From positions 310,001-374,000 of the forward strand of contig NZ_CP019063.1 of the NCBI RefSeq assembly GCF_002951615.1: a DNA stretch of 64,000 nucleotides. The letters are read 5' to 3'. This document shows positions 24,644 through 64,000 of this stretch, in pieces. The stretch is from Rahnella sikkimica. Lineage in GTDB: Bacteria; Pseudomonadota; Gammaproteobacteria; Enterobacterales; Enterobacteriaceae. Position numbers and translations under genes: made by a program. Each line of letters begins with the position of its first letter. The first letter of the stretch is position 1. The notes below the pieces were generated by a model that saw nothing but the letters and a program-made list of their open reading frames with translations, had not been told where the DNA came from and did not search any database.

Positions 24644-25115
24644 GATAAATCCTTATAAATTCCATTAAAAAACGTGCCGGCAATTCCCTCTCCAGAGGGT
24701 TCTGCCTGTTTACCCGGACTTCTGAATCCGCGGGAATAACCTGGCGATAAGAAAATTCTCACATGGCGTTTGTTAAGTCACTGTCCATTTTTGTGGTTAA
24801 TTTTTTTAGAGGGAATAACCGAAAAAAACCTCCTGCAAGAAAACCAACATAACTCGATGAAACCATTAATTAAAATCCGAAAAATAATAAATACTGTATG
24901 ACTTAAACAAATCATATCTCTGAACAAAATAAGATCAACTCTTATGCAAATTCGTTAATGGAGTGTTAGGATTAAACCTAGAGTGATTAATCAGACCTTT
25001 TAGAACTTTAACAAAAACACATCACACTCCCGTCGCCATATAGCATTCTAAACTGTTTCTCAACACGCTTGAAATTAACGCTAAATAACAATTGCGATAT
25101 TTTTTAATTTGTAAT
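24644..25115. other. AT-rich region upstream of the fimbrial operon
   Basis: This 470-bp divergent region is markedly AT-rich and holds no gene that I can support. It should contain the promoters of the fimbrial operon (minus) and of the unknown regulator (plus). Its composition would suit H-NS binding, an inference. I could not fix promoter boxes with confidence. Confidence 0.5.
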
Positions 25116-46510: not shown

Positions 46511-46566
46511 GATTTCACCTGTAAGTTTTTCTTTTATCAGCCCCTAAAATTAACAGTTTGTTGTAA

Positions 46567-47760
<1,194 letters not shown>

Positions 47761-47864: not shown

Positions 47865-48869
47865 CTACATATTCAGGCTTTTACGCTGCATAAAACTCTC
47901 GTAGCGAAAATACATATCGCAGGACAAGTGAAACTCTTTAAGCCAGTACGCGTAAACATGCAGGAAGTGATACATCAGACAAGGCAGATAGCACAGCAGG
48001 AAATACACCACGAACGGCATGCTGATAGTAAGGCCGCCTGCAATGAAACTCAGAATAAATATCCACCCCGCCTGTACCATAGCTAACAGTATTATCCGGA
48101 CTAAAAAGGGCTTGCTGATAAACCGACCGAAGGGCACCGGCGGAGCAGAATAGATGGTGATCTCTTTCAGAAAGATACGCCCCAGAAACAGGTAGCGTTT
48201 AGAAAGCCGCGAAAACGCCAGGTTTATAGCCAGCACGACGCCGCAGAGGATCAGCATGGCAATCATCAGTCTGGCGGAAAAATACCCCTCGCTGAAGGAA
48301 AACGCCGGATTCGCCTGCAACGGGCTAACCGAAAGCACATTGAGCGCGGTATTCACTGCAACGTAATAACCGGTGTACTGATAGATATTCCTGAAACTCA
48401 CCGTGCTGCTCATGCCGGTCAGCACCTGGCGGATATAAACCCGCCGCACCGTTCTGAAGACCAGAGTCATGAAAACCGGTGATATCAGATACAGATAAAT
48501 AATGCTGAACCGGCTGGCGGGCAACCGTAAACACACCTGCGCCATCAGCCAGAAAAAGATCACAGAACAGGCACTGACGACCGCAGGTCTGGCGAAAAAT
48601 GCCGTTATTTTTGAGCAGCTTCGGCCTTTCAGGGCATCCAGATTAACGCGGTTAATCACATAGCTGTAAGCCCAGTACGCTTTCAGTTCGTGCAGCAGCG
48701 TAAAGAGCGTGATCGCCAGAATTACGCTGACCGTACCCGCATCATGGGAAGTAAAGGAAAAGGCGTTATTTTTCCAGTAAAAACCCAGCACAACGAACAG
48801 AATAACGCAGATAAACGGAATGAGTTTTTTATCCTGAAAGCGAACAAACTTTGCATAATCGGGGATCAT
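47865..48869 (-). CDS. Polytopic inner membrane protein of the PKS-like cluster, unknown function
   Basis: The 334-residue protein has about eight to ten predicted membrane helices and no motif I can name. Its start overlaps the stop of the acyltransferase gene by 4 bp (ATGA), so it belongs to the same transcript, of which it is the last gene. 'HELKAYWAYSYVINR' and the C-terminal 'YHFLHVYAYWLKEFHLSCDMYF' carry several His and aromatic residues, which may hint at a lipid-modifying enzyme or transporter, but this is speculation. Confidence 0.7.
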   Translation of the reverse strand: MIPDYAKFVRFQDKKLIPFICVILFVVLGFYWKNNAFSFTSHDAGTVSVILAITLFTLLHELKAYWAYSYVINRVNLDALKGRSCSKITAFFARPAVVSACSVIFFWLMAQVCLRLPASRFSIIYLYLISPVFMTLVFRTVRRVYIRQVLTGMSSTVSFRNIYQYTGYYVAVNTALNVLSVSPLQANPAFSFSEGYFSARLMIAMLILCGVVLAINLAFSRLSKRYLFLGRIFLKEITIYSAPPVPFGRFISKPFLVRIILLAMVQAGWIFILSFIAGGLTISMPFVVYFLLCYLPCLMYHFLHVYAYWLKEFHLSCDMYFRYESFMQRKSLNM

Positions 48870-49807
48870 TTCACGCCACTCACTGTGCCATCAGTTTTGC
48901 AATGCACCGCCATTTCGGGCGTGAATTTTGCGAAATCATTGAGTAAATGAATCAGATAGGCTTTGTTGCTGATCTCGGCAAACTGAACCGGTGTCGGCTT
49001 ATCCAGAAAGTGCTCCATAGACGCCGTCCATTGCACGGCGTGCGTCAGATGCAGGGATAAATTCTCCCTGATGATCTCAGGATTTGTTACGGGCAAACCG
49101 GTGACGTTCATCAGCACGTCAAACTGTGGCGGCCTGATATCTATGTCTGCCAGAAAATCGCGCATCGGTTGCACGCCGCTGTTCATCAGACGGGTATGCC
49201 ACGCCCCGCTCACTCCGGGCTTGATGCTCTCAAGCACGGCTCCGGCAACCGCCTGACCGGCGTTACGCAGCGCGGTTAGCGTGCCGCCGATCACCTGTTG
49301 CTTACGGCTGTTATCGCAGCTTATTTCTGCCTCAATGCCTTTTTGCGCGAGCAGTTCAGTCAGGCCCGCCCGGTCGCTGCCCTTCACCACCAGCATGCTC
49401 CCTTTGTTCGCGAGGCTCAGGTCGTGCATCAGCGTGGAACGGAAATGAATGACCCGGAATAAATCCTCCAGCGTGATAGCTCCGGCGGCGTAAAGCGCGG
49501 AATATTCCCCCACGCTGTGACCGCAGGCACCGGAGAAGGCCACATCGCCGTGACTTTCGCGATAAAGGGTAAAAAGCATCGTGTTAATGGCCGTGACGGC
49601 GATTTGCTGCACGGGGGTCTGAACCAGCCGGGTCATCGGCCCTTTAGCACACAGGCGGCGGATATTCAGCCCGGAAATATCACTGGCGCAATCCCAGATA
49701 CGACGGGTTTCGGCACTGGTATCCCATAAGTCAGATCCCATCCCGATGACCGGATTCCCCTGCCCGGCAAATAATAAGACAACCGGTTTTGTTGCGTTTA
49801 TGTCCAT
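48866..49807 (-). CDS. FabD-like malonyl-CoA:ACP acyltransferase
   Basis: From ATG 49807 the protein has 313 residues. It shows the FabD pattern: 'LLFAGQGNPVIGMGSDLW', the active-site 'GACGHSVGEYSALYAAGAI' (Ser98; GHSxG) with the downstream catalytic His in 'GAWHTRLM', and 'NVTGLPV' near the end. It should load malonyl, or another extender unit, onto the ACP encoded at 60694. A dedicated AT gene supports a self-contained polyketide or fatty-acid pathway. Confidence 0.88.
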   Translation of the reverse strand: MDINATKPVVLLFAGQGNPVIGMGSDLWDTSAETRRIWDCASDISGLNIRRLCAKGPMTRLVQTPVQQIAVTAINTMLFTLYRESHGDVAFSGACGHSVGEYSALYAAGAITLEDLFRVIHFRSTLMHDLSLANKGSMLVVKGSDRAGLTELLAQKGIEAEISCDNSRKQQVIGGTLTALRNAGQAVAGAVLESIKPGVSGAWHTRLMNSGVQPMRDFLADIDIRPPQFDVLMNVTGLPVTNPEIIRENLSLHLTHAVQWTASMEHFLDKPTPVQFAEISNKAYLIHLLNDFAKFTPEMAVHCKTDGTVSGVK

Positions 49808-49828
49808 CTCTCTGTCCCTGTGAATCAC

Positions 49829-51190
49829 CTAGAGGTGATACTTAAAACCCAGATAAGTGCCGAGAGTTTCGCCGAATAAAGCAAACTCCGAATCACTCTT
49901 TCCAAATGCCGTGTAAAGACCGCCATAAAGCTCAAGCTGCGGATTCAGCGGCTTGTTGATATTCAGGCCGACGGTCGCACTCTTGTCCTGTAAATTCATG
50001 ACAGCAAAAGGCTGAACCGATGACTGGTCATCCGTCAGGAAACTGCCGTAGGCGTTGAGGTAATGTTTTCCCAGCAGGTTTCCCTGGCTGGAAGCGTTGT
50101 AGATTTCAGACGCCATCAGATATTTGTAGGCGTCAAATGCCCGGTCCAGCGGCGCGTAATTCGTCCTCTGGTTCAGGAATTTAATGAGGTCCGTTTGTTT
50201 GTCCCACTGCGCGGAAGAATATCCTTCACTTTGAAAGTAATATTCGAGGCCAAACTGACTGAAGCGATCGGTGGTGTATTGCATTCCGAGCGCCAGCTCA
50301 ACGCCATCGTCATCCTTTGCGCTGTAAAGGGCGTCAGGGAAACGGTAACTCTGCACATCGCGCGCACTCTTTTCGTCTAGGTGCAGCCACTGCTGCTGAA
50401 AATGGTAGGCCAGTTCGGTGCTCAGAATGAACTGCGGCGTGACGTTCAGCGTTTGTGCAACGGCGACCGATTTTTTATCGCCCGTCATCAGGCTTACCGA
50501 AGGCGTGCTGTCACCCCACCGGTAATCCGTGTACGTCAGCAGATAACGGTCGCTGGCATTGGAACGGGCCAGCGCATTCCAGTTTCCCGAAGATTCATAG
50601 CGCGGACCGGGCTGCGTGAGCCGTGGCGCCGCGGTTAACGACAGCGAGTAAGCAAGCGTATCCTGCGCCAGCACCGCGCCCCAAAATGCATCGGTATAAA
50701 GCGGTTTCATGTCAGGTGAATTAATACGCGTAGCCTTAAACCCGGCGTTGTAATTGCTGAGCAGGCTGGCCGGGGATTTCAGGTAGAAAGCGCCGCCTTT
50801 TGGCCGGAGTTTACCGACGTCCAGCCGGAGACTTTCTGTCGGTGTGTAGGACAAACGAAGCTTATCGATCAGCGCCCGCAGGCGGTGGTCGTCTTTCTCA
50901 AAGGCGCCGGGACTTTTATACGGATAATAGGCCAGGCCGAGCAGCGAGAAATCCACGTCCAGCTTGTCTTCAACCAGCGTGCAGTCGTTGCGGTAATTCA
51001 GCGCGACATCATTAAACGTATTGTTTGCGGCATACGGGTTTTTCCCGTCAATCTGCCAGACAGGCGGTTGTTTACTGACGTAAGACGCTTGCGCGTAAAT
51101 CACCGTGTCGGAATTCGTCAGGCAGGCGGCGTAAAGCGGTAACGACGGCCACACGCCGCTGGCCAGTATCAGCAAGGCAGAACGTTTCAA
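49829..51190 (-). CDS. Outer-membrane beta-barrel protein of the PKS-like cluster
   Basis: The 453-residue protein has a signal peptide (cut near PLYAAC) and a mature part rich in alternating aromatic/hydrophobic strands ('LDVGKLRPKGGAFYLKSP', 'YLLTYTDYRWGDSTPSVSLMTGDKK', 'TLGTYLGFKYHL'), consistent with a beta-barrel. It does not match a family I can name. Overlap by 4 bp with the LolA-like gene points to a joint role in moving the product into or through the outer membrane. Confidence 0.7.
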   Translation of the reverse strand: MKRSALLILASGVWPSLPLYAACLTNSDTVIYAQASYVSKQPPVWQIDGKNPYAANNTFNDVALNYRNDCTLVEDKLDVDFSLLGLAYYPYKSPGAFEKDDHRLRALIDKLRLSYTPTESLRLDVGKLRPKGGAFYLKSPASLLSNYNAGFKATRINSPDMKPLYTDAFWGAVLAQDTLAYSLSLTAAPRLTQPGPRYESSGNWNALARSNASDRYLLTYTDYRWGDSTPSVSLMTGDKKSVAVAQTLNVTPQFILSTELAYHFQQQWLHLDEKSARDVQSYRFPDALYSAKDDDGVELALGMQYTTDRFSQFGLEYYFQSEGYSSAQWDKQTDLIKFLNQRTNYAPLDRAFDAYKYLMASEIYNASSQGNLLGKHYLNAYGSFLTDDQSSVQPFAVMNLQDKSATVGLNINKPLNPQLELYGGLYTAFGKSDSEFALFGETLGTYLGFKYHL

Positions 51191-51978
51191 TTGCCGCCCC
51201 GCTGAATACTCTCTTTCGTAAAGCGGGAAAGCGGCAGCGACTCAAACCGGACATCGCTGTATTCCATGACCGAATAACCGCTGCCACGGCGCGGATCCGT
51301 GACTTTAATTTTGGACGGTCTTTCCCTGCCCAGCAGCGGTGTGTAACCGAGGTACCACACTTCCTTAAGCAGCTTGTCATCGAGAGAAAAATACGACGCT
51401 TTATAAGGGCGGTAGCTGCCTTTCTCCACGAGGTAATTCACTTTCGGATAGGTGACTTCCGCTGAGCGACGGGTGAGCATCAGCGAATAGCAGACGTTCG
51501 CGCCGCAAGGGACTTCGCCCTGCAACGTGGCGTCATACGCAAACTCAAAGTTAGTCACAATCACGTCGCCGTTAGAGATCTGCCCGATCAGCCTTTGCTG
51601 ACGGGAGATCGGCACAGGGCGGCGCAGCTCCGGCGTGTAAAACCATAAGTCGTAGCCGTCGGACAACATGACTTTGCCGCGATCCCGTGGCGGAGAAACG
51701 AAGCGCGCCAGTGAACGGGCGTCGGCCTGTTCACCGTCTTTCGGTTTCAGAAAGCGCATGGAGATATCCAGAACCTGCTGATTCACCGGCGCATTTTCGC
51801 CGGATTTAAATTCATTCACGGTCACCGTGTAACGAAAGGGCTGATCGGGTGACCGGATATCGTCGGCCTGCCGGATGATATTCAGGGCTGTGCTGGTGTC
51901 TGCAACGTGCCCGTCTGCGTGCGTGAATACCGGGAACCACGCGAGACAACTGGCGATTAGAAAGCGGCCTGATTTCAT
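51187..51978 (-). CDS. LolA-like outer-membrane lipoprotein-sorting protein
   Basis: The 263-residue protein has a signal peptide (cut near FTHA) and the beta-cup layout of outer membrane lipoprotein-sorting proteins: 'RYTVTVNEFKSGE', 'RGKVMLSDGYDLWFYTPELRRPVPISRQQRLIGQISNGDV' and 'RPSKIKVTDPRRGSGYSVMEYSDVRFESLPLSRFTKESIQRGG'. Such proteins carry lipids across the periplasm. It lies between the ABC permease and the outer-membrane protein genes, fitting a carrier between the two membranes. Confidence 0.82.
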   Translation of the reverse strand: MKSGRFLIASCLAWFPVFTHADGHVADTSTALNIIRQADDIRSPDQPFRYTVTVNEFKSGENAPVNQQVLDISMRFLKPKDGEQADARSLARFVSPPRDRGKVMLSDGYDLWFYTPELRRPVPISRQQRLIGQISNGDVIVTNFEFAYDATLQGEVPCGANVCYSLMLTRRSAEVTYPKVNYLVEKGSYRPYKASYFSLDDKLLKEVWYLGYTPLLGRERPSKIKVTDPRRGSGYSVMEYSDVRFESLPLSRFTKESIQRGGN

Positions 51979-51988
51979 GGAGATGTCC

Positions 51989-53302
51989 TTATACCGCTTT
52001 AAAAGCGTCCGAAATATTCAACCGCGATGCCCGCAGTGCCGGTAAAACCGAGGCCAGTGACGACGTGAGCACCGGCAAAATCAGGGTGATCCAGATGAGT
52101 TCGGCACTGTCCGTTTTGATAAAGGCGTTGTAGCCGAGCGTCTGCCCCGGAGACGGCGGCATCGCGATACCTTTCAGGTTGATCAGGTAGGCAATCACCA
52201 TTCCCAGAATCAGGCTCCCCGCAGCACCGAGCGCGCCGATATAAATCCCTTCAAGCAAAAACAGTCGTGTTACGTGTCCGGGTCGCAGGCCGATCGCCCG
52301 CAACGTGGTGATTTCGCGGGTTCGTTCGGCGATATTCATGGTCATTGAATTGCTGATCATGAAGATCACGATCAACGCGACAATGGCTTTAATGAAGAAG
52401 TAAATGCCGGTCAGCAAGCCTTCAACCTGCTGATAAAAAATCGACAGTTCTTGCCAGTTTTTCACCATCAGCGGCAAATGCCGGTCGGCAATAAACTGTG
52501 TGAGTCTGGCGCTGAACTCCGGCAAATCCGCATCATCGTTCAGCAGAATGACGAACTTACTGACGCCATTGGTGTTCATCATGTGCTGCGCGGTTTGCAG
52601 GGGAATTTTCATCGCCACGTCGTCATAATCTTTTATGCCGGAGGTGAAAATGCCGCGCACTTTCAGTGACAATGCGCCCTGCCCGCCCTGCGCGTTGGCC
52701 ACCAGCACGTCCAGCCAGTCGGAATACTGTGCGTTCAGGGTTTTTGCCAGTCCGCTTCCCAGGATCACTTCATCCGTTTTAATGCGCGACAGATCGCTGC
52801 CTGACACCAGTTTGTCGAAAGAGCCCAGTTTCAGCGCCGGTAAAGGCTCGATGCCCAGACCGGCAAAATAGCTTGAGGTTTCACTCTCGTAGTGGGAAAT
52901 CACACCGGTAAATTCGAGCTGGCCTGAAATCGTGGAAATATAATCTTTCAGTTCGGGGTCATTCAGGATTTCATTTTTCAGCTCGTCATAATTGCCAATA
53001 ATGCTTTTGCTTTTATTCGAGGTTTCAAAATAGTTTTTGTCGTAAATCTGAATATGACCGACGTTGGTTCTGACGGTTTGTTCTTTCAATATCCAGAAAG
53101 AATACTGAATAAAACCGCCGTAAAGGAAAATGGCTAATCCACCCAAAATAATGGCGGTCAGGGTAGAGAAGGAACGTCGCTTATGTCTGAATAAATTCAG
53201 GAAGGCAAATTTCGTATCCTGCGGCCGCCGGATCAGGCAATATAATACAAAACCGACGATCACCAGCAGGGCGAGGTTGGTTATAATCATTCCAGTTAAC
53301 AT
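51989..53302 (-). CDS. ABC transporter permease, LolC/E-MacB type
   Basis: The 437-residue protein has an N-terminal membrane helix, a large periplasmic domain (residues about 60-290) and three C-terminal helices with the FtsX signature ('SMTMNIAERTREITTLRAIGLRPGHVTRLFLLEGIYIGALGAAGSLILG'). This is the LolC/LolE/MacB topology, used to extract lipids or lipoproteins rather than to transport through a channel. ATPase and LolA-like partners are encoded on either side. A probable dimer with the ATPase at 53940. Confidence 0.88.
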   Translation of the reverse strand: MLTGMIITNLALLVIVGFVLYCLIRRPQDTKFAFLNLFRHKRRSFSTLTAIILGGLAIFLYGGFIQYSFWILKEQTVRTNVGHIQIYDKNYFETSNKSKSIIGNYDELKNEILNDPELKDYISTISGQLEFTGVISHYESETSSYFAGLGIEPLPALKLGSFDKLVSGSDLSRIKTDEVILGSGLAKTLNAQYSDWLDVLVANAQGGQGALSLKVRGIFTSGIKDYDDVAMKIPLQTAQHMMNTNGVSKFVILLNDDADLPEFSARLTQFIADRHLPLMVKNWQELSIFYQQVEGLLTGIYFFIKAIVALIVIFMISNSMTMNIAERTREITTLRAIGLRPGHVTRLFLLEGIYIGALGAAGSLILGMVIAYLINLKGIAMPPSPGQTLGYNAFIKTDSAELIWITLILPVLTSSLASVLPALRASRLNISDAFKAV

Positions 53303-53956
53303 TTACTCACCTTTCATCAAAGGCACAACAATCTGAGTGATTTCACCGATATCCCACGCGGGGCTGGCATCTGACTTCAGGGATAATAATTTTACCGCCA
53401 CCGGGCCGCGGTTTTTAAGTTGTGTTAAAAGCGTATTCGCCCCGGCGGTATCTCCGCAACTGAGCAATGCCCGGTAACGCATAAAAAGAATATTGATCAG
53501 GATATCGCTGTCGAAATTAGCCCGGTTTTTTAACAGATAATCGGTATCGGCCAGCGCTATGACACAGCGCCCTTGCTTTGCCGGTAAATAAGCATCAATA
53601 CGGGCGCGTAAATAACGCACCTGCGGTGTATTTTCATGCGAATCAGCCGCTTCATCCAGATAAAAAAAACCTGTTTTCCCGTATTCCGAGGCCAGCACAT
53701 AATCATTCACCGCGGCATAGTGATCCGCCATCCGCAGCGTGCCGTAAGAGTAGAAAATCAGCGATGCGATATCTTTTTGCTGTTCATATTCATGCAGCAA
53801 TGCCTGCGTGGTGGCCGATAACGCCTCCGGCTGAACAGGGAAACCCTGTTGCAGCACGGCCTCCAGAGCCGGTGTCCCGGAACGCGCGGCGGCAGCTCCG
53901 TGAACGGCTAAAGACAAGCAGATCGCGAGAATAACGGCGCTATTTCGAAACATCAT
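53303..53956 (-). CDS. Periplasmic protein of unknown function with TPR-like helices
   Basis: From ATG 53956 the protein has 217 residues with a signal peptide (cut near GAAAA). The mature part is alpha-helical, with repeated Leu/Ala/Tyr patterns ('AALSCGDTAGANTLLTQLKNRGP') that could be TPR-like. Its start overlaps the ATPase gene's end, and it abuts the permease, so it likely assists this exporter. I do not recognise the family. Confidence 0.62.
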   Translation of the reverse strand: MMFRNSAVILAICLSLAVHGAAAARSGTPALEAVLQQGFPVQPEALSATTQALLHEYEQQKDIASLIFYSYGTLRMADHYAAVNDYVLASEYGKTGFFYLDEAADSHENTPQVRYLRARIDAYLPAKQGRCVIALADTDYLLKNRANFDSDILINILFMRYRALLSCGDTAGANTLLTQLKNRGPVAVKLLSLKSDASPAWDIGEITQIVVPLMKGE

Positions 53957-54647
53957 GAACAATTTCTCCATCCTTGATTTCAATCACCCGCCGCGCCCGG
54001 TCCCTGAGCTGCGTGGAGTGGGTCGAGACAATAAATGTGGTGCGGGTTTCCTGATTAATCTTCATCAGCAGATCCAGAATCGCCTCGCCGGTAGCCTGAT
54101 CAAGATTGCCGGTGGGTTCGTCCGCCACCACAACCTGCGGGTCATGCGCCAGCGCTCTGGCAATTGCCACACGCTGTTGCTGACCGCCAGAAAGTTGCCC
54201 CGGCGTGCGGTTGCCCAGTGCGCCAATGCCGACGCTCTCAAGGGTCTGTTGTGTCCGTTCCCGCGCCTCTTTCCGGCCATACCGGCCATTGAGGATCAGC
54301 GGATAACACACGTTATCAAACGCGGAAAGCACCGGGATCAGGTTGAAAAACTGGAAGATAAATCCCAGATGACGGCCGCGAATGACGGACAACTGGCCTT
54401 CATCAAGCTCGTTCAGCGATTTATCCAGAAACAGCGTCGAGCCCGACGTGGGCTTATCAATGCCGGACAAAATGTTCAGCAACGTACTTTTCCCGCTGCC
54501 GGAAGGCCCGCACAGCGCCAGAAATTCGCCTCGGGCAATCTCCAGATTAATATTTTTCAGCGCGTCGACTTTGCCGTCGCCGGTTCCGAAGCTTTTACAC
54601 ACATCCATCAGCAATATTGCCGGCCGTTCCCTGATCATCGTCGCCAT
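53940..54647 (-). CDS. ABC transporter ATPase, LolD/MacB type
   Basis: The 235-residue protein has all ABC motifs: Walker A GPSGSGKST (residues about 43-51), Q-loop 'IFQFFNLIPVLSAFDNV', signature LSGGQQQRVAIARAL, Walker B 'VVVADEPTGNLD' and the H-loop 'STHS'. It pairs with the FtsX-type permease at 51989 to form a LolCDE/MacB-like lipid exporter. No HlyD-type adaptor gene is present. Confidence 0.9.
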   Translation of the reverse strand: MATMIRERPAILLMDVCKSFGTGDGKVDALKNINLEIARGEFLALCGPSGSGKSTLLNILSGIDKPTSGSTLFLDKSLNELDEGQLSVIRGRHLGFIFQFFNLIPVLSAFDNVCYPLILNGRYGRKEARERTQQTLESVGIGALGNRTPGQLSGGQQQRVAIARALAHDPQVVVADEPTGNLDQATGEAILDLLMKINQETRTTFIVSTHSTQLRDRARRVIEIKDGEIVHDVSK

Positions 54648-54659
54648 CGTTTCGCCCGC

Positions 54660-55646
54660 TTAATTTCCCTGAAACCAGGTGTCAAAGTACTGATATCCGC
54701 CCACGTTATCCGGCACGATGGTGCGCATTTTCCCGCCCGTTACCGTATGTTGCTGAAGATAAATCCAGCTCAGCGCGGGCGTCAGGCAGCCGCTGCCGCC
54801 ATAGCGTTCGGGCAGGCTGACTTTTTGCCTGTCACGCTTATTTTCGCTGAATGTTTCGCGCCAGAGACTGTTTCGTCTTAAACCTGAAAAACACATCAGG
54901 TCAATATCGTCATCGGCACCGGAAAAAATATCCCCCGATGCCACCTCTTTATTCTGCGGAATATATTTCCCGGTATTAATTTTCAGAGAACTTTCCCGCT
55001 GACTGAAAATAAAACACCCGACACGCTCAACCGACAGGTTTATTTTTATGTCCTGATCCTGAATTATCTCTTTTTTATTCACGGCCAGATCTTCATCGGA
55101 GAACACCAGCACCGGCACCGCCCGGTAAGCGGCACAGATCACCACAAAATCGAAGATATCCCAGTCAAGATAATCCTGCGCCAGACGCATGGCCTGAACC
55201 AGCGACTGTTTTTCGCCACGAATTTTGCAGCTAAAATCTTTGACGGCGAATTTTTTGATCAGATTTTTCGGTAATGTATCGATCGTCGCCTGATGCAGTG
55301 CGCTGTTAATATTTTCAAACGAAGAACTTTCGCCCCAGCTGTCGGCATAAATAAAGGCCGTCCGCGATTTCATCAATAACATCCGCTCTTTCGCGCTGAG
55401 GTTATGCAATGCCGCTTCCGACACGTCTTCCATCGCAACAATATAATCCGTGTAATGGGGCGTTCTGATCATCTCACTGGCGTAAATATCACTGCCCGTT
55501 CCAAACCGTTTAAATCCCCAGCCGTTTGAACGGGTGGATTTAAGCGCGCGGTTATAGAGGTGTGACTCCCAGACATTCAGCCAGGAAGGCGCATACATAT
55601 ACACCCGCCCTTCCGGCTCGGTCATGGCGAAGGAAGATAAATACAT
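54660..55646 (-). CDS. Ketosynthase-like (thiolase-fold) protein without a clear active site
   Basis: I do not recognise this 328-residue protein with certainty. A stretch at residues about 85-190 ('TAFIYADSWGESSSFENINSALHQATIDTLP' ... 'LVQAMRLAQDYLDWDIFDFVVICAAY') resembles the N-terminal half of ketosynthases, but I see no TACSS-type Cys, HGTGT or NxKxxxGH motif. It may be a structural partner, like the chain-length-factor-type proteins of aryl polyene clusters. It lies between the third KS gene and the ABC exporter genes. Confidence 0.5.
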   Translation of the reverse strand: MYLSSFAMTEPEGRVYMYAPSWLNVWESHLYNRALKSTRSNGWGFKRFGTGSDIYASEMIRTPHYTDYIVAMEDVSEAALHNLSAKERMLLMKSRTAFIYADSWGESSSFENINSALHQATIDTLPKNLIKKFAVKDFSCKIRGEKQSLVQAMRLAQDYLDWDIFDFVVICAAYRAVPVLVFSDEDLAVNKKEIIQDQDIKINLSVERVGCFIFSQRESSLKINTGKYIPQNKEVASGDIFSGADDDIDLMCFSGLRRNSLWRETFSENKRDRQKVSLPERYGGSGCLTPALSWIYLQQHTVTGGKMRTIVPDNVGGYQYFDTWFQGN

Positions 55647-55664
55647 AATACTTTCCCTGTAAAA

Positions 55665-56909: not shown

Positions 56910-59435
56910 TGTAGTTTCCGCCTTCGTTCGCCCCGACCAGCAGAACATGCCTGATGACCATTTTCAGCGGGGCTTTAACAAAGTTGATGCGATCGTCGCA
57001 GAACACCTGAGTATGCGGAATGGCGGGCACCGCCTGTTTCCTGATGCAGTCCGCCAGCACCGCCAGATTGAGCAGCCCGGCGCAAGATTCCACGAACCCA
57101 AAGCTGGCGTTGTAGTTCACCACCGGCACCTGCGGATTTTGCTCACCGAACGCCAGGCAGATCGCGCCGATTTCAATCTCAGAACTCTCTTTGGTGCCGT
57201 TACTGCTGCCGCACACCAGATCGATATCCCGCGCCGTGAGGCCCGCATCGGCTAAAGCCCGGTGGATTGCCAGCGCCATGGCGGCCGATTTTTCGTCGGC
57301 GCAATCGGCATCAAAATAGCTGATGCTGTTGGATTTGCCGTAACCGGCGATTTCCGCGCAAATCTCCACGCCGCGCGCCTGAGCGGCGTCCAGATCTTCC
57401 AGCAACAACATGCAGGCACCTTCGCCCGGCACAAAACCTTTCGCCTCCTTGCCGTACACCTGATATTCGCGGGGTCGGACGTCATCTGGATTTTTCCGGT
57501 GACCGCATCCATATACAGCGACATGGACGGGAAACACTCGTCAGCGCCACCGACTAACACCTGCGGTTGCAGCTGCTGGCGGATGATTTCATAACCGTAG
57601 GTCAGCGCGCCCAGCGACGCGTTTTGCCCGGTCGCCAGCGTGGTGGTGTAGCCTTTAATCCCTTCGGAAATCCCGCAGAAAGTGGCAATCGAATTCATCA
57701 GCGAGCCGGGGAATTCGGACGTACGCACTTTGCGCGGATCGGGTTTCAGGCTTTGCAGGTATTTATAGGTCGTTTCCTGCGGCCCGCGCGACATTCCCAT
57801 CACCAGCCCCAGTTCGTGACCATCTCGTTTGATTTTATGTTTCGCGTTGTTCAGCGCTTCCGCCAGGGCAATCAGGGCAAAGGTTCCGCCACGCGTGGCT
57901 TTGCGTGAGTCAAAACGCCGCAAATGCTTGCGCGGTTCCAGCGCCGTGACCTGAAAGGTTTTGAAGTCGGCGTTATTTTCCGGCAGAACCGCACCCGGCG
58001 AACGGCGTGAGGAACCTGTCAGACGGTCAAACTGATGCGTTTGGGTCAGTACGTTCAGAAGCTCACCGGCCTCTTCGAGTGTGTCCTCATTGAAGGTGAC
58101 GCCCGTCAGTTCAACGGATTTCTCAGCAGACCAGATATGTTCGAGTATTTCGTTCAGGGTATGGCCGATGGCCGAGACGGCACCCATGCCGCTGATCGCC
58201 ACGCGCTTCGCCTCGTAGGCGGTGACCGGAACCGTGCCCGGACGCGTGCTCACAATCATGCAGCAGTTATTTCCGCCGAAGGCATAATTGTTTTTCATGA
58301 AGATATTGATGTCCTTCTCCCTGAATTCATTCGGCACATAATCCAGATCGCAGTTCGGACGTGGCACCGTAAAATTCAGCGTAGGGAGAAGTTTCTTTTC
58401 AGGCAGCGTCACCAGACAGGCGATGAGTTCGACAATTCCTGCCGCGCCGATATTGTGCCCAAAGAAGGATTTGGTCGAGCTGACCGGAAGATTGACCGCA
58501 TCGGGAAAGACTTTCTTCATCGCCAGCGTTTCGATCCGGTCATTGGCTTCGGTACCCGTGCCATGCACGTTCACGTAATCAATCTGATCGGGGGTGACAC
58601 CGGCATTTTCCATTGCCTTGAGCATCACCTGCACCGCGCCGCTGGCACGCGGATCCGGGCCGGTTTCATGGTAGGCATCGCACGACGTGGCGTAAGAGAG
58701 AAGCTCGCCATAAATCGTGGCACCGCGGGCAACGGCGTGCTCGTACTCTTCCAGCACGATAGCCCCCGCACCTTCACCGATGGACATCCCCGACGTGCCG
58801 GAGAACGGCGTGCAGGATCCGTCATGCATGACGTTGAGGGCGTAGAAACCGGCAAAGGTCGGCAGATAAATCGGCTCAGTGCCGACGGCAAGCATGGTGT
58901 TACTTTTGCCATTCTGGATATAGTCAAAAGCCATGCCGATGGCATTCGGGCTGGCGGTACACGCTGTCGCCACCAGTTCCGTTCCCCCTTTCAGCCCCAG
59001 CAAAGTCGAGACGCTGGAGCAGCAGGACGCAAACCCGCCGGAGTAAATGGCCTTTCTCAGCGAGAAATCCTGAATACGCTGTTCGAAGAGCGGCAGAAAC
59101 GCTTCGGTTCCCGCCGAGGACACGCCGACGATCATTCCGGTTTCTTCGAGATCACCCGTTAACCCGGCGGCATTCAGCGCATCTTTGCTGACTTTGTAGG
59201 CCCACAGCGCGGCGTTATCCATTGCGCTGACCGTCTCAGCATCCAGCGGAGAGTAATCGATATCTTGCAGGATCTCCGCCGCACGTGCGTTTTCAAACCA
59301 GTGCGAAAAGCGCGAGCTGTCTTGCACACCGCATTCTTTATTGAGCAGGGCCTGCCTGAACCCGGCAATGTTATCCGCCAGTGAAGACAAAATCCCCATC
59401 CCTGTAATGACTACTCTTTTCCTGCTCGTTTTCAT
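56887..59435 (-). pseudogene. Fused KS-alpha/KS-beta (chain-length-factor-like) protein, frameshifted
   Basis: Residues 1-400 form a complete ketosynthase: Cys159 in ATACTAS, His291 in HGTGTEAND, His327 in STKSFFGHNIGAAG. From residue about 410 ('KRVAISGMGAVSAIG') a second KS begins, in which the nucleophile block reads LATGQNAS, placing Gln604 at the Cys position, the hallmark of type II PKS chain-length factors. The frame breaks after 'KIQMTSDP' (residue 655) and the protein continues in another frame ('REYQVYGKEAKGFVPGEGACMLLLEDLDAAQARG') to 56887. The break is in the GGGG run at 57471-57474; one more base would give about 849 residues. KS-alpha and KS-beta are normally separate proteins, so the fusion is unusual. 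The gap may be a sequencing error. Confidence 0.8.
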
Positions 59436-59449
59436 AAATAAGTCCCTTA

Positions 59450-59463
59450 GGTCTGATCAGACC
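59450..59463. promoter_or_regulatory. Palindrome between GcvT-like and KS genes
   Basis: GGTCTGATCAGACC is a perfect 14-bp palindrome, and its TGATCAGAC half recurs at 59468-59476. It lies 15 bp before the KS start in the only larger gap (70 bp) of this part of the cluster. It may be an operator or an RNA structure. Confidence 0.4.
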
Positions 59464-59505
59464 GGGTGATCAGACAACGTCTCCGGTGCGGTGTGTTTAA
59501 AAAAT

Positions 59506-60666
59506 TTACAGGGCGCTTTTCGGCTTTGAGGCATCGATATAGCTATGTTCAGTCGGGTTAACCAGCATGCTGAAGTTGTAGAAGAAGGGAACGTTACGGG
59601 TCATGGCCGCCACGGCTCCGCCCTGCGTCGCAATCTCAAAACCCGGAATGTCGGAATAGGCGTATTCGCTGTCAATCAGTGCCAGCGCGATCAAAGACTG
59701 ACACGCCGGTGAGTAGACACTTTTGACGATGACACCGACGTCGCGGCCTTCAGCACGCACCGGGTCATCGGCGGCAATGCCTTCACACACGGCGACGGGA
59801 ACAATTCCGACCAGCTTGCGTCCTGCGCCCGCACAGGAAAGGGATTCCGCCGCGGATTTGCCGACAAAATCGTCTTTGTCATACTGAATCGCCCACTGCA
59901 TTTGCAGCTCAACCGGGTTGCGGGAATAACCGCTGAACAACGCGGGTTCCCAGCACGGGTTTTCAACGCGGAGCGTATTTTGATAATTCAGGCCGCCGGT
60001 CTTCAGGTCGAATGGCTCACCGTTTTCCAGCAGTTGTTCCCAGACCTTGCACAGCGCCGCTTGCCCGCCAATCAGCTGGTACGCAAATTCACCGTGTTTG
60101 CCGCAGCGCAGCACCATCAGGCCATCGTCCGTGCTCATATATTCGTGATACGGCAGGCCGATAATGTCGAAGCCGTAAATACCGGCGAGCACTTCCCAGG
60201 CATAAGGCCCTTCGAGCTGAATTGCGCCCCAGCCGTGCGGTTCCATATCCTGAATGACCGGCGTCTCTTCAATATCCAGATCGGCGGCATTCTCCAGAAT
60301 TTGCTTCAGGCGGTCGATCAGTTCAAAAGCGGACAGGTTTTCTGACAGCAGGTAATACCCTTCATCGGTACACAGCACCGAAATATCCCCGGCAATGGTG
60401 CCGTCCTGATTGAGCACCAGCGAATACATCGCCTGCTCATCACGGATTATCGAGACATCCGCTGAGGCTAAATAGTTGACCAGCGCCCACGCGTCATCGC
60501 CCATGACGCTGACGACGGACATGCTGGAATAATCCACCATCAGGATATTTTCCCTGACCGCTTTATATTCCACTTCCGGTGAGTGATAAAAAGCAGGCAC
60601 GGTTCTGCCGTTAAATGTGCCCATCGTGGCGTTATTTTTTTCATGTAATTCACGCAGCGAAATCAT
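59506..60666 (-). CDS. GcvT-like (aminomethyltransferase family) folate-binding protein
   Basis: The 386-residue protein follows the T-protein family: 'VPAFYHSPEVEYKAVRENILMVDYSSMSVVSVMGDDAWALVNYLASADV' at the N-terminus, 'MYSLVLNQDGTIAGDISVLCTDEGYYLLSENL', and 'GAIQLEGPYAWEVLAGI'. T-proteins bind tetrahydrofolate and transfer a one-carbon unit. Inside a PKS-like cluster such an enzyme is unexpected; it might methylate or demethylate, or transfer a methylene unit to an ACP-bound intermediate. Family assignment is fairly sure, the role is not. Confidence 0.82.
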   Translation of the reverse strand: MISLRELHEKNNATMGTFNGRTVPAFYHSPEVEYKAVRENILMVDYSSMSVVSVMGDDAWALVNYLASADVSIIRDEQAMYSLVLNQDGTIAGDISVLCTDEGYYLLSENLSAFELIDRLKQILENAADLDIEETPVIQDMEPHGWGAIQLEGPYAWEVLAGIYGFDIIGLPYHEYMSTDDGLMVLRCGKHGEFAYQLIGGQAALCKVWEQLLENGEPFDLKTGGLNYQNTLRVENPCWEPALFSGYSRNPVELQMQWAIQYDKDDFVGKSAAESLSCAGAGRKLVGIVPVAVCEGIAADDPVRAEGRDVGVIVKSVYSPACQSLIALALIDSEYAYSDIPGFEIATQGGAVAAMTRNVPFFYNFSMLVNPTEHSYIDASKPKSAL

Positions 60667-60693
60667 TCGAACCTCATTATTTAAAAGGGAGTT

Positions 60694-60978
60694 TTACTGT
60701 GGCTTTCGGTTTTTAATCACGAAAGACGCCAGGTTATTTACCGTTCTCATAAAAGAGGGATCATCGCTTTCGCTGACCTGAATGCCATAAAGCTTATCGA
60801 GTAAAACCAGAATTTCCGTCGCATCGACAGAATCAAGTTTCAGGCCATTACCAAACAGTGCCGTATCATCGTCAATCTGCGATTCTGTTTTCTGAATATG
60901 CAGACGCTGAATCAGCTCGGTTTTAATCTGATGTAATACGACTTTGCGTGCTTCGATACTTTCCTGAATTAAGCTCAT
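60694..60978 (-). CDS. Acyl carrier protein
   Basis: The 94-residue protein is a single ACP: 'TALFGNGLKLDSVDATEILVLLDKLYGIQV' has Ser50 in DSVD as the phosphopantetheine site. A dedicated PPTase gene lies three genes upstream. It is the probable carrier for all steps of the cluster (AT, KS, KR, DH). Confidence 0.9.
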   Translation of the reverse strand: MSLIQESIEARKVVLHQIKTELIQRLHIQKTESQIDDDTALFGNGLKLDSVDATEILVLLDKLYGIQVSESDDPSFMRTVNNLASFVIKNRKPQ

Positions 60979-60993
60979 GGGTATTGCTCCATA

Positions 60994-61551
60994 TTATAAT
61001 TGTTTCACTTCTCTGAAATTGATTATCACGCCCTGGCTGATAATTTTTTTGCCGACCTGCGCCGAAACACTGTAATGCCTGAATCCGCTGGCGTCGGAGA
61101 ACGTCAGCTTACTGGTCACTTCTATCGTGTCGCCGGGATACGCAACATCTTTGAATTTTAAGTTTTGTGAAGCCAGAACGCCCTGCACCTGCGCGCGACG
61201 CGCCCGGATAATATTGCGCATGTTTTCATCATGAATTTTAGAATAAATATCACGAAGTGAATGCAATGCCTCACCGTGGTTTTCCTGATAGATGTCACTC
61301 ATATCCGTCAGAAAAGAGAAATACTCGCTCGCCTGGCCAAATATCTCTGAAATAATCGCGCCCGGCATGATCGGGTTCTCAGGAAAGTGCCCGAGCAAAT
61401 AAGGGTCATTATAGGTGACATGCTTAATAATTTTGATGTACCCGTTTTCACCGTATTTAAAATCTTCAATACGGTCGACCATAATAAGCGGCTGACGCCA
61501 GCCGCCCATCTCAAGGAATATTTTGGAAGGAATAGCATATTTAGACATCAT
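60994..61551 (-). CDS. FabZ/FabA-like 3-hydroxyacyl-ACP dehydratase
   Basis: The 185-residue protein has the hot-dog dehydratase signature 'LLGHFPENPIMPGAIISEIFGQASEYF', with catalytic His in GHFP and Glu in SEIFGQ. It is longer than FabZ (about 150 residues), with an inserted helix region (residues 88-125). It should form trans-2-enoyl-ACP from the KR product. Its ATG directly follows the KR stop, so the two are coupled. Confidence 0.87.
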   Translation of the reverse strand: MMSKYAIPSKIFLEMGGWRQPLIMVDRIEDFKYGENGYIKIIKHVTYNDPYLLGHFPENPIMPGAIISEIFGQASEYFSFLTDMSDIYQENHGEALHSLRDIYSKIHDENMRNIIRARRAQVQGVLASQNLKFKDVAYPGDTIEVTSKLTFSDASGFRHYSVSAQVGKKIISQGVIINFREVKQL

Positions 61552-62307
61552 TCACCGCATCACCAGGCCGCCATCAATAACGATGGTTTGCCCTACAATA
61601 TAGCTCGCCGCTCCGGAGCTTAAATAAACCACGGTATTCGCCACTTCTTCGCATTTCCCCAGGCGACGCAGAGGAATGGATGACGTTATTTCCCGCACGA
61701 CGGTGCGCGACACTTTTTTCACCATTTTGGATTCGATCATGCCCGGCGCAATCGCATTAACCCTCACGCCCCTGGGTGCCAGTTCGGCGGCCAGCGTACG
61801 GGTGAACGCGAGCAACGCGCCTTTTGATGCACTGTAATTGCACTGGCCTACGCTTGGGATCAGCGCAGCAATCGAGGCCACGTTAATGACCGCCGGGTTT
61901 TCAGCAGCTCTGAGCATCAGCAACAGCTCTTTGGTCAGCCTGAACACGCTCAGCAAATTGGTATCAATGACGGCGCTGAAATCTTCAAAGCTCATGGCGG
62001 CAAACAAACTGTCTTTGACGATACCCGCGTTATTGACCAGCACATCGATGTGTTTCGCTTCCTGCGCCAGTCTCTGGCACAAGCCGCTGACTGCCTGTTT
62101 ATCCGAAAGATCACACTGAATGAGGTTCAGTTTATGACCGTCCGGATGCTGTTCTTTGAGCGTCTCCAGAGAACGGGCGTTGCTGTTATACAGCGCAAAC
62201 ACCTGACATTGCTGATTCAGGTATTCTGCACAAACTGCCAGTCCGATATCACCGCTTGCCCCTGTCACCAGGATGTTTTTATCTGCTAAATCATTAAATT
62301 TATACAC
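61552..62307 (-). CDS. FabG-like 3-ketoacyl-ACP reductase
   Basis: The 251-residue SDR has 'VTGASGDIGLAV' (cofactor), 'VLVNNAGIVKDSLFAAM', catalytic 'NVASIAALIPSVGQCNYSASKGALLAFTRTLA' (Ser, Tyr, Lys), 'RVNAIAPGMIESKMVKKV' and 'SYIVGQTIVIDGGLVM'. It matches FabG and should reduce 3-ketoacyl-ACP using NADPH. With KS, DH and no enoyl reductase gene in the window, the product would keep double bonds, so a polyene is possible. Confidence 0.88.
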   Translation of the reverse strand: MYKFNDLADKNILVTGASGDIGLAVCAEYLNQQCQVFALYNSNARSLETLKEQHPDGHKLNLIQCDLSDKQAVSGLCQRLAQEAKHIDVLVNNAGIVKDSLFAAMSFEDFSAVIDTNLLSVFRLTKELLLMLRAAENPAVINVASIAALIPSVGQCNYSASKGALLAFTRTLAAELAPRGVRVNAIAPGMIESKMVKKVSRTVVREITSSIPLRRLGKCEEVANTVVYLSSGAASYIVGQTIVIDGGLVMR

Positions 62308-62316
62308 AGTGTTCCC

Positions 62317-62697
62317 TTAATCCTTTTGGGACGAAATAACCGTTACTGCAATTGCATGTGTACGGCAATGAGAAATGCTTAACGAAATCGCATTGATTTT
62401 TTTATCTTCCATGACGTCTTTTAAATGCCCGCTGATAATAAAATGCGGGCATCCGAACTGATCATGCTCAATTTCTGCATCGTGGAACCGGATCCCTTCC
62501 CGAAATCCTAATCCCACCGATTTAACAACGGACTCTTTCGCGGCCCAAAATCCTGCGGCCCTTTCATAATCAGGATCGTTGCTGTTAATGCTTAACCGTT
62601 CGCGCTGCGTGAAAACTCTTTGCAGGAATTTGTCTCCGCCCCGCAATATCGCCGTCTTCACGCGCTCCACCTCAACAATATCCGTTCCAACAAACAT
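62317..62697 (-). CDS. AcpS-type 4'-phosphopantetheinyl transferase
   Basis: The 126-residue protein has the AcpS motifs 'GTDIVEVERVKTAI' (residues 4-17, Asp metal ligand) and 'ERAAGFWAAKESVVKSVGLGFREG' (Glu/Lys catalytic block). It should activate the cluster ACP. It lies between the TpsB-like and KR genes with gaps of 14 and 9 bp, so it is in the same operon. A second AcpS besides the housekeeping one implies a specialised ACP. Confidence 0.9.
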   Translation of the reverse strand: MFVGTDIVEVERVKTAILRGGDKFLQRVFTQRERLSINSNDPDYERAAGFWAAKESVVKSVGLGFREGIRFHDAEIEHDQFGCPHFIISGHLKDVMEDKKINAISLSISHCRTHAIAVTVISSQKD

Positions 62698-62711
62698 GAT
62701 GATTCCTGCAA

Positions 62712-64000
62712 TCAGAGCTGATAAGACAGCGTGAAATTCACATTCAGCTTATCGGCATTTAATTCATCCGGATAAAGCAGCGGCGTGGACAAGGCAATAT
62801 CGTAAGCCAGCGTATTAATATTGCCCTTAAATCCGCTGGTGGCTCCGAGGAGTTTCTTCCCGGAATAAGCGCCCTGCGGATAGGTTTCACCCCATATTTC
62901 ACCGTAATCAACCCCGGCATACCATTCGATATTCTTAATGCCGGTAATAAGATTAAACGTATTTTGCGCGTAAAAGCCTTTATCGCCATACAGCCCCTGC
63001 GTATTTTCAAAACCACGCACATTCCAACGGTCACCGAGCGTAAACTGATCCTGCAATGTCAGCTTGTCCGGCGAATACTGAAGACCTGAACTTAACGCGT
63101 AATAGGCAACGAAATTTTTCACGTTGAATAACGTCGTGTAATTCGCATTCAGGTTGTAGAGATGACTCTGCGCACTGACATCGCCGGATTTCATATCCGG
63201 CGTTTTCTCACCGCCTAAAAAGGGAACAAACCGCTGATACGACAATGTGCTGTCGAGTAATGCCCGGTTAAAATTTTGCTTATAGTTAATCCCGAAGCGT
63301 GCATTGGTCATATCGCGCTTTTGTAGCGCCAGTTCGATATCTTCTAATTTGTAGTTAACCTTTCTTTTGATTAACTCAGCACTGAGCGCCACTTTCTTAT
63401 TACTGTCACGATAAACCGTTCTGTTGCCTTTCAGGCTGAGATAATCACTGTCGCCCGTGTACTTATAATTCCAGGTTTCCAGAGGAATATTTTGTTTCGA
63501 CTGACTGCTGCTGTAAAACACCTCGTAATCCCAGTAACCCCAGGGAACCGAATAGTAGGCGCTGACGCTTTTGTACCCGCCGCTGCTCCGCTCGGTATTC
63601 GTCGTCCCCGAAAGATAAAAGGTATCGTTCATGTGCGCCAGGTTGTAAATGTAAGCCGCGCCGCCTGCGAGCACTTTTCCCGTGGCTTCGTCACCCCAGT
63701 TGTTCATCCAGACTTTACCGTTCCAGTTTTTTGTCCGGTCTGCGTTTATGACGACATTGCTGTACCCGTTCTGGTGTCCGGGTTCTATATTGATCTTTAC
63801 TTTCAAATTTGGGGCTTTTTGCAAGACTTCCAGCCCCTGCTCGATATCCCGAAGATTCAGTATATCTTCGGCTTTAAAAGGCAATATCCCGGGCCGGATT
63901 GCGTCATCGCTGATAATGATATTTTCAATTCTGCCCGGCATGACAACCAGTTTTAACTGATGCGTCGTTAAATTCTGCCCCGGCACATCGACCCGCGTGG
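62712..64000 (-). CDS. TpsB/ShlB-like two-partner secretion transporter (partial, 5' end beyond window)
   Basis: The open frame runs to the window edge; residues before 63986 continue 'TRVDVPGQNLTTHQLKLVVMPGRI', so the N-terminus lies outside. What is visible includes a POTRA domain ('RPGILPFKAEDILNLRDIEQGLEVLQKAPNLKVKINIEPGHQNGYSNVVI') and an Omp85-type barrel with 'LGDRWNVRGFENTQGLYGDKGFYAQN', the conserved VRGF/Y motif of loop L6. TpsB proteins export large beta-helical TpsA partners. No TpsA gene is visible; it may lie beyond the window. Finding it in the same operon as PKS genes is unusual. Confidence 0.85.
   Translation of the reverse strand, partial: TRVDVPGQNLTTHQLKLVVMPGRIENIIISDDAIRPGILPFKAEDILNLRDIEQGLEVLQKAPNLKVKINIEPGHQNGYSNVVINADRTKNWNGKVWMNNWGDEATGKVLAGGAAYIYNLAHMNDTFYLSGTTNTERSSGGYKSVSAYYSVPWGYWDYEVFYSSSQSKQNIPLETWNYKYTGDSDYLSLKGNRTVYRDSNKKVALSAELIKRKVNYKLEDIELALQKRDMTNARFGINYKQNFNRALLDSTLSYQRFVPFLGGEKTPDMKSGDVSAQSHLYNLNANYTTLFNVKNFVAYYALSSGLQYSPDKLTLQDQFTLGDRWNVRGFENTQGLYGDKGFYAQNTFNLITGIKNIEWYAGVDYGEIWGETYPQGAYSGKKLLGATSGFKGNINTLAYDIALSTPLLYPDELNADKLNVNFTLSYQL

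What the first reader, a model, noticed from the sequence alone, without database searches (positions are those of the whole stretch)
47865..64000. Unrecognised iterative PKS/FAS-like cluster with its own lipid export pathway
Sixteen co-directional genes, many overlapping, give AT, KS fusion, two altered KS, GcvT-like protein, ACP, DH, KR and AcpS together with LolCDE/MacB-type ABC genes, LolA-like carrier, outer-membrane barrel and TpsB-like transporter. Aryl polyene clusters share the idea of KR/DH/KS plus a LolA-like protein, but here I see no ammonia lyase, AMP ligase, thioesterase or glycosyl/acyltransferase. The absence of an enoyl reductase suggests a polyene or hydroxylated acyl product. 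The combination does not match a system I can name.
Basis: partly seen in the sequence, partly recalled or inferred. Interest (0 to 1): 0.88.

Follow-up and report, generated by a model that had tools for sequence, protein, structure and literature searches.

The report
Polyene-type lipid synthesis-and-export cluster (OI-47 family)
This is a real, conserved bacterial gene cluster that probably builds an unusual unsaturated lipid and carries it to the outer membrane; its E. [quoted passage not shown]

Summary
The cluster is real but not unrecognised. In a probable Rahnella genome it has 16 genes in the window, with TpsA just outside. The split KS genes are one KS–chain-length-factor (CLF) gene, frame-shifted here; 11 of 12 other loci hold it as one frame. 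The same order recurs in Enterobacter and E. coli; 370 of 5426 E. coli genomes match, and content and position fit O-island 47 of O157:H7. K-12 ycdU with an AT fragment looks like its deletion scar.

Aryl-polyene starter and attachment genes were not found. The synthase set resembles the Gram-positive cyl (granadaene) core: a GcvT-like gene lies directly upstream of KS–CLF in 33 of 80 scanned loci. A CylE-like protein was not found. The 328-aa 'unknown' has a predicted thiolase fold.

Best reading: an iterative type II synthase makes a conjugated polyene acyl chain, and a Lol-like ABC–LolA–barrel route places it in the outer membrane. Motifs and gene order are shown; product, release and the GcvT role are inferred. 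Trees do not prove one origin with cyl. A distinct Gram-negative variant; no product was found in the papers searched.

The parts
47865..48869 (-). YcdU-like inner-membrane protein, 334 aa, last gene of the run; function unknown
   Evidence: 39% identical to E. coli YcdU at the same place; 7 hydrophobic segments; no Pfam/NCBIfam family over cut-off; 49 homologues
48866..49828 (-). Malonyl-CoA:ACP acyltransferase (AT), 320 aa
   Evidence: Pfam Acyl_transf_1 6.9e-25; fabD model 164 bits, below its cut-off of 261; GHSVG motif
49829..51190 (-). Putative outer-membrane beta-barrel protein, 453 aa (inferred)
   Evidence: One N-terminal hydrophobic segment and no other; conserved next to the LolA-like gene; no Pfam, NCBIfam or PDB hit
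51187..51978 (-). LolA_like periplasmic carrier, 263 aa
   Evidence: Pfam PF17131 6.8e-35; PDB 3buu, LolA superfamily, 4.8e-33
51989..53302 (-). FtsX/LolCE-type ABC permease, 437 aa
   Evidence: Pfam FtsX and MacB_PCD; NCBIfam lolCE 103.7 bits, below its cut-off of 362
53303..53983 (-). Conserved, probably exported protein, 226 aa; function unknown
   Evidence: N-terminal hydrophobic segment; conserved at this place; no family
53940..54647 (-). LolD/MacB-type ABC ATPase, 235 aa
   Evidence: Pfam ABC_tran 3.5e-35; Walker A and LSGGQ
54660..55646 (-). Diverged thiolase-fold (KS-like) protein, 328 aa; KS Cys/His motifs not visible, active site not mapped on the model
55665..56948 (-). Third KS-like protein (KS3) with altered active site, up to 427 aa (true start probably near 56887)
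   Evidence: Pfam ketoacyl-synt 3.6e-13; alignment A3 read by eye: Asn at the Cys position in the window (Cys in L045), first His kept, second His replaced by Tyr
56887..59435 (-). KS-CLF fusion gene broken by a frame shift near its residue 660 (frames 57252-59435 and 56887-57537)
   Evidence: One 849-858 aa ORF in 11 of 12 other loci; KS half has TAC / HGTGT / STKS..GH; CLF half of relatives lacks the Cys
59506..60666 (-). GcvT-like protein, 386 aa, non-housekeeping clade
   Evidence: Pfam GCV_T 1.2e-35; separate from housekeeping GcvT in the tree; positions Y81, D94, E193, R233 kept in 15 of 15 Gram-negative rows
60694..60978 (-). Acyl carrier protein, 94 aa
   Evidence: Pfam PP-binding 1.2e-5; DSV site
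60994..61551 (-). FabZ/FabA-like dehydratase, 185 aa
   Evidence: Pfam FabA 1.9e-15; HFPxNPxxPG motif
61552..62307 (-). FabG-like ketoreductase (KR), 251 aa
   Evidence: Pfam SDR families; NCBIfam FabG model NF009466 227 bits over its cut-off of 222; NYSASK motif
62317..62697 (-). AcpS-type phosphopantetheinyl transferase, 126 aa
   Evidence: Pfam ACPS 1.5e-18
62712..64000 (-). TpsB (ShlB/FhaC-type transporter), continues to 64370 outside the window; TpsA (854 aa) lies just beyond, at 64426-66990 in window numbering
   Evidence: Pfam ShlB, POTRA and TPS domains; TpsA/TpsB found in some but not all loci of the family

Best explanation
A Gram-negative type II (dissociated, iterative) synthase cluster. 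AcpS arms the ACP; AT loads malonyl; the KS-CLF fusion extends the chain repeatedly to a length set by the CLF half; KR and DH act in every round and no enoyl reductase is recognised, so a conjugated polyene acyl chain results. The two unusual thiolase-fold proteins (KS3 and the 328-aa protein, adjacent genes) may form a complex that primes or releases the chain, and YcdU may attach it to a membrane lipid. The LolD/LolCE-like ABC transporter takes the lipid out of the inner membrane, the LolA-like carrier takes it across the periplasm and the barrel places it in the outer membrane. In some genomes, including this one, a two-partner-secretion exoprotein is encoded at the head of the same run of genes and may share the surface. 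Shown: enzyme families, active-site motifs, gene order; predicted: thiolase fold of the 328-aa protein. Inferred: polyene product, direction and cargo of export, roles of KS3, the 328-aa protein, YcdU, the barrel and GcvT. The window's own copy has a broken KS-CLF frame, so this strain may not make the product, or the assembly is in error there.
For: Families and motifs. KS catalytic Cys-His-His kept and CLF Cys lost in the relatives' fusion. Thiolase fold. ABC, permease and LolA-like genes beside the synthase genes in Rahnella, E. coli, Enterobacter, Serratia silvae, Erwinia and Paraburkholderia loci. GcvT next to KS-CLF also in Actinomycetota and Bacillota clusters. Delivery of aryl polyenes by LolA- and LolB-like proteins is a published proposal (PMC8253772, passages).
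Against: No product has been measured. No thioesterase, CylE-like protein, AMP ligase or glycosyltransferase was found, so release and attachment are guesses. The Proteus mirabilis version has no LolA-like or barrel hit and only weak ABC matches (28-30%), so that export route is not universal. Iterative synthases without ER can also make hydroxy-acids or other chains. In the scan, KS-CLF relatives without a GcvT hit were the majority (47 of 80; some of those contigs are short). In the KS-CLF tree the Gram-negative clade does not group with the GcvT-linked clade of other phyla, and the GcvT label needs three changes.
Confidence: 0.6

Rival explanations
1. It is a true cyl/granadaene-type cluster: an ornithine- (or amino-acid-) capped polyene pigment, possibly haemolytic, in Gram-negatives.
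For: AT, KR, ACP, DH, GcvT, KS, phosphopantetheinyl transferase and ABC exporter all have counterparts in the cyl table of PMC6985545 (sections 7 and 8 read); a GcvT-like gene lies directly upstream of KS-CLF in both.
Against: An HMM of three CylE-like proteins (label inferred) finds 8 Actinomycetota loci, three of them its own seeds, and weakly 2 Bacillota loci, but nothing in the window or in 17 Gram-negative loci; no glycosyltransferase. Gram-negative GcvT and KS-CLF each form one clade on a long branch, not joined to the others.
Confidence: 0.1
2. It is an aryl-polyene (APE) cluster variant.
For: KS/CLF, KR, DH, ACP and LolA-like parts; outer-membrane targeting (PMC8253772 passages).
Against: No acyl-ACP synthetase/AMP ligase, thioesterase, lysophospholipid acyltransferase, glycosyltransferase or RND transporter found in the cluster; KS and CLF fused; GcvT present.
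Confidence: 0.05
3. The acyl chain is not a free membrane lipid but a modification: of the TpsA exoprotein, of LPS or of phospholipids; the chain may be hydroxylated or partly unsaturated rather than a full polyene.
For: TpsA/TpsB are the first genes of the run in the Rahnella, Enterobacter and E. coli loci.
Against: TpsA/TpsB gave no hit in the stretches held of the Serratia silvae, Erwinia, Paraburkholderia, G029, G015 and G038 loci, while synthase and exporter stay together.
Confidence: 0.2
4. In this particular genome the cluster is disabled (or looks so through a sequencing or assembly error) because KS-CLF is frame-shifted.
For: Frame break near residue 660; the closest relative held, G011 (94% and 99% identical in the two frames), has one intact ORF.
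Against: The other genes have open frames that align end to end with their relatives', which would suit a very recent mutation or a reading error; the tools hold no reads.
Confidence: 0.5

Closest known systems
[quoted passage not shown]
   Same: E. coli MEI003 and GF3-3 carry the same 17 genes in the same order, with 39-78% protein identity; O157:H7 records are among the 25 rows listed of 370 matching genomes; content and position fit published descriptions.
   Different: E. coli version is chromosomal at ycdU-serX beside fimbrial genes; TpsA is 1270 aa against 854 aa here. I did not fetch EDL933; the identification rests on published descriptions and on other E. coli strains.
E. coli K-12 ymdE-ycdU
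   Same: In NEB 5-alpha ycdU follows a 357-nt 3' fragment of the cluster's AT gene; I take that fragment to be ymdE.
   Different: Everything upstream is gone, with an IS3 at the break. PMC4951805 (passages) treats the pair as mastitis-associated and uncharacterised and, in the passages seen, does not link them to a cluster.
cyl operon of Gram-positive bacteria (granadaene)
   Same: AT/KR/ACP/DH/GcvT/KS set plus ABC exporter.
   Different: No CylE-like protein or glycosyltransferase found; Lol-like envelope-crossing parts and two extra thiolase-fold proteins here.
Priestia megaterium plasmid cluster (NZ_CP120620.1)
   Same: PPTase-AT-KR-ACP-DH-GcvT-KS/CLF fusion, no CylE annotated.
   Different: About 30% identity in KS-CLF; an annotated acyl-CoA thioesterase and extra SDR at its head and an MFS transporter after it; no KS3 or 328-aa protein annotated.
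Aryl polyene clusters (APE)
   Same: Type II iterative logic and a LolA-like protein.
   Different: Lacks the starter, release and attachment genes and the RND transporter; KS-CLF fused; GcvT added.

Membership tests
Enterobacterial OI-47-type cluster | Same gene set and order TpsA-TpsB-AcpS-KR-DH-ACP-GcvT-KS/CLF-KS3-u328-ABC-u226-permease-LolA-barrel-AT-YcdU | tested here: met
Enterobacterial OI-47-type cluster | Intact KS-CLF fusion gene (a matter of activity, not of kinship) | tested here: not met
   Frame shift in the window; intact in 11 of 12 other loci
cyl (granadaene) operon | CylF-like GcvT next to the KS gene | tested here: met
   not compared with the GBS protein itself
cyl (granadaene) operon | CylE acyltransferase, marked as conserved in all cyl operons (PMC6985545, Table 1) | tested here: not met
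   HMM of three CylE-like proteins (label inferred): no match in the window, L008, L009 or 17 Gram-negative loci at E up to 10; only the stretches held were searched
cyl (granadaene) operon | Glycosyltransferase or CylJ | tested here: not met
   None by Pfam at E up to 0.001
cyl (granadaene) operon | Ornithine rhamno-polyene product | not testable with these tools
   No chemistry available
Aryl polyene cluster | Starter activation (AMP ligase), thioesterase, acyl/glycosyltransferases and RND exporter | tested here: not met
   against the APE gene list
Aryl polyene cluster | LolA-like chaperone beside KS/CLF, KR and DH | tested here: met
Lol-type ABC export route | LolD-type ATPase and LolC/E-type permease | tested here: inconclusive
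   lolCE model 103.7 bits against a cut-off of 362: a relative, not shown to be LolC/E
Thiolase/KS fold (328-aa protein) | Thiolase fold | tested here: met
   Predicted model only:

The most novel reading that the evidence does not exclude
The enterobacterial OI-47 family is a Gram-negative branch of the lineage that makes haemolytic-type polyene lipids in Gram-positives. It carries its own trans-envelope lipid route and, in some genomes, a surface exoprotein encoded at its head; in the Rahnella branch it may be switched on and off by a neighbouring FimB-type invertase. The GcvT-like protein acts on the ACP-bound chain itself rather than supplying ammonia for ornithine, and KS3 plus the 328-aa protein form a new thiolase-fold releasing or priming pair.
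Probability: 0.2. Interest if true: 0.8.

Novelty: new variant of a known kind. Interest (0 to 1): 0.58.

Why it matters
It gives a concrete, testable pathway for a large uncharacterised island found in 370 of 5426 complete E. coli genomes. Homologues of its 328-aa protein, so far as named, come from Klebsiella, Kosakonia, Mixta, Pantoea, Rahnella, Acinetobacter and others (120 of 134 hits listed). It offers an origin for the K-12 genes ymdE and ycdU as a deletion scar. A GcvT-like gene paired with KS-CLF in loci of several phyla, with a CylE-like match in only 10 of 33 of them (two weak), also questions the proposed role of CylF as an ammonia source for ornithine.
Full report
What is there. 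The window is G000:C2:310001-374000 of a 5.53 Mb genome. The genus is probably Rahnella: G009 is 'same genus', its contig is 76577 bases long, and a protein on a 76577-base contig is named Rahnella bruchi. From 47865 past the window end, minus-strand genes overlap or follow closely. Pfam and NCBIfam and, for YcdU, the E. coli counterpart give, in transcription order: TpsA (outside the window), TpsB, AcpS, KR, DH, ACP, GcvT-like, KS/CLF, KS3, a 328-aa protein, ABC ATPase, a 226-aa probably exported protein, an FtsX/LolCE-type permease, a LolA-like protein, a 453-aa probably exported protein, AT, and YcdU.

The broken synthase gene. The 727-aa frame (57252-59435) matches relatives only up to about residue 654-666, and the 216-aa frame (56887-57537) carries the rest. 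In 12 other loci examined for this gene, 11 hold it as one ORF of 849-858 aa; the exception is K. aerogenes NCTC10006, whose record has several cluster genes split. Three of the 11 are E. coli. The KS half keeps the Cys-His-His set; the CLF half has lost the Cys in the aligned relatives. Whether the shift is real or an assembly error cannot be told here.

Conservation and distribution. Gene order is the same, 17 genes, in Enterobacter bugandensis plasmid pEC105227L and E. coli MEI003 and GF3-3. Protein identities for 12 loci are: the stretches of G029, G015 and G038 gave no TpsA/TpsB hit (their YcdU end was outside or at the edge of the stretch), and Proteus mirabilis gave no TpsB, LolA-like or barrel hit. 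Serratia silvae, two Erwinia and one Paraburkholderia locus have the synthase-exporter set plus a second SDR and a weakly similar YcdU (33-66 bits), but no TpsA/TpsB in the stretch held; a second Paraburkholderia locus gave similar synthase and exporter hits. Among 59 genomes searched, the window's own included, 7 have a full-length match, 3 of 14 in the genus: a patchy spread. In E. bugandensis the whole cluster lies between two inverted, 99.9% identical 811-bp IS6-type copies, so it could move as a unit.

E. coli and K-12. 370 of 5426 E. coli genomes match the stretch 57252-61200, 368 over at least 80% of it; many of the 25 rows listed are named O157:H7 or O55:H7. Published descriptions put O-island 47 (z1528-z1556) here: 'adhesin and fatty-acid biosynthesis' (PMC5567499, passages), its extent (PMC8565820, passages), a haemagglutinin/activator pair in S-loop71 (PMC2323221, passage), and ycdU directly upstream of OI-48 at serX (PMC3064760, passages). 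I did not fetch EDL933, so this identity is by description and position. ycdU of MEI003 matches in 2646 of 5426 genomes, 2591 over at least 80%, far more than the cluster. In K-12 NEB 5-alpha, the one such genome I read, an IS3 is followed by a 357-nt 3' fragment of the AT gene and then ycdU: a deletion scar. PMC4951805 (passages) reported ymdE-ycdU as part of a mastitis-associated core.

Relation to known systems. [quoted passage not shown] A Priestia megaterium plasmid has PPTase-AT-KR-ACP-DH-GcvT-KS/CLF. The choice of query favours such loci, so 33 of 80 is no frequency.

Trees. GcvT: 26 other cluster loci were given (three GcvT-linked loci, L118, L119 and L122, were not), two fell out by length, and seven duplicate rows were dropped, leaving 50 rows. 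The 15 Gram-negative cluster rows form one clade (100/100) and 10 housekeeping GcvTs another (95/95); an eleventh, distant control row is an outlier. The program warned of long branches and of uneven composition in ten rows. KS-CLF: 82 of 90 loci gave an ORF; length limits and removal of five near-copies left 74 rows (quick method, no bootstrap). The 13 Gram-negative rows form one clade (SH-aLRT 100) on a long branch, next to two long-branched rows without GcvT; 22 of 23 other GcvT-linked rows cluster (SH-aLRT 91). The GcvT label needs three changes, so one origin of the module is possible but not shown.

CylE. Proteins of 680-725 aa between DH and GcvT in three Actinomycetota loci carry a GNAT domain in the two tested; I label them CylE-like from size, domain and place, with no GBS protein compared. 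Their HMM finds 8 Actinomycetota loci (three are the seeds), 2 Bacillota loci weakly, and nothing in the window or the 17 Gram-negative loci.

GcvT. Relative to T. maritima T-protein the window keeps Asp94 at the place of Asp96 (alignment, counted by hand; the catalytic and folate-binding roles are recalled). Y81, D94, E193 and R233 are kept in 15 of 15 Gram-negative rows, whereas of these four only the Glu is kept in all 24 other rows. Since GcvT stays with KS-CLF where no CylE-like gene is found, a role in ornithine supply, as proposed for CylF, is less likely here; action on the ACP-bound chain is my inference.

Mechanism. Initiation, elongation and reduction follow from the enzyme set and intact motifs. 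The KR's first Pfam name reads 'Enoyl-(ACP) reductase', a broad family; a FabG model scores over its cut-off. No other reductase is present, which predicts a conjugated polyene. Release, attachment and cargo of the Lol-like route are inferred. Aryl polyenes offer a precedent for LolA-assisted delivery (PMC8253772, passages). Searches for a product or a cyl link in print (open-access library only) found none. OtpA of O157, which I take (from memory) to be the E. coli TpsA, is listed as of unknown function (PMC5422565, passages).

Verdict. Ordinary in being a known, widespread but unstudied locus; notable in its resemblance to the granadaene core, its four thiolase-fold domains, its own envelope-crossing route, and the origin it offers for K-12 ymdE-ycdU.

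Noticed in passing
L009:5643-6194 (G000:C2:377642-378193, just outside the window): A FimB-type tyrosine DNA invertase (NCBIfam NF007370, 247.6 bits over a cut-off of 221) lies about 650 bp upstream of TpsA in the window genome and in G011; a short inverted repeat about 250 bp apart lies between them in the window, partly kept in G011, but both genomes show the same orientation.
   Followed up: partly
window 45632-47760: A class C beta-lactamase gene (NCBIfam bla_class_C over cut-off; best name PSZ family, below its own cut-off) and a divergent LysR regulator, best name PenR below cut-off, lie directly beside the cluster on a 549-kb contig.
   Followed up: no
L047:2440-3250 and 24650-25460 (E. 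bugandensis plasmid): Two inverted 811-bp, 99.9% identical IS6-type copies bracket the whole 17-gene cluster.
   Followed up: partly
L136:12433-14987 (E. coli K-12 NEB 5-alpha): IS3, a 3' AT fragment and ycdU: a deletion scar of the cluster; ycdU matches in 2646 of 5426 E. coli genomes.
   Followed up: partly
L132:833-7404 and L134:5842-12556 (Nitrospirota / Thermodesulfovibrio MAGs): A KS pair next to a LolCDE-like permease and ATPase without a GcvT hit: possibly another lipid-export synthase locus.
   Followed up: no
L049:7098-22464 (Proteus mirabilis): A divergent version of the cluster with TpsA but no TpsB hit, no LolA-like or barrel hit, and only 28-30% identical ABC genes.
   Followed up: no
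L168:3-2018 (G030): A second TpsA-like gene, 50% identical, lies upstream of the cluster's TpsA.
   Followed up: no
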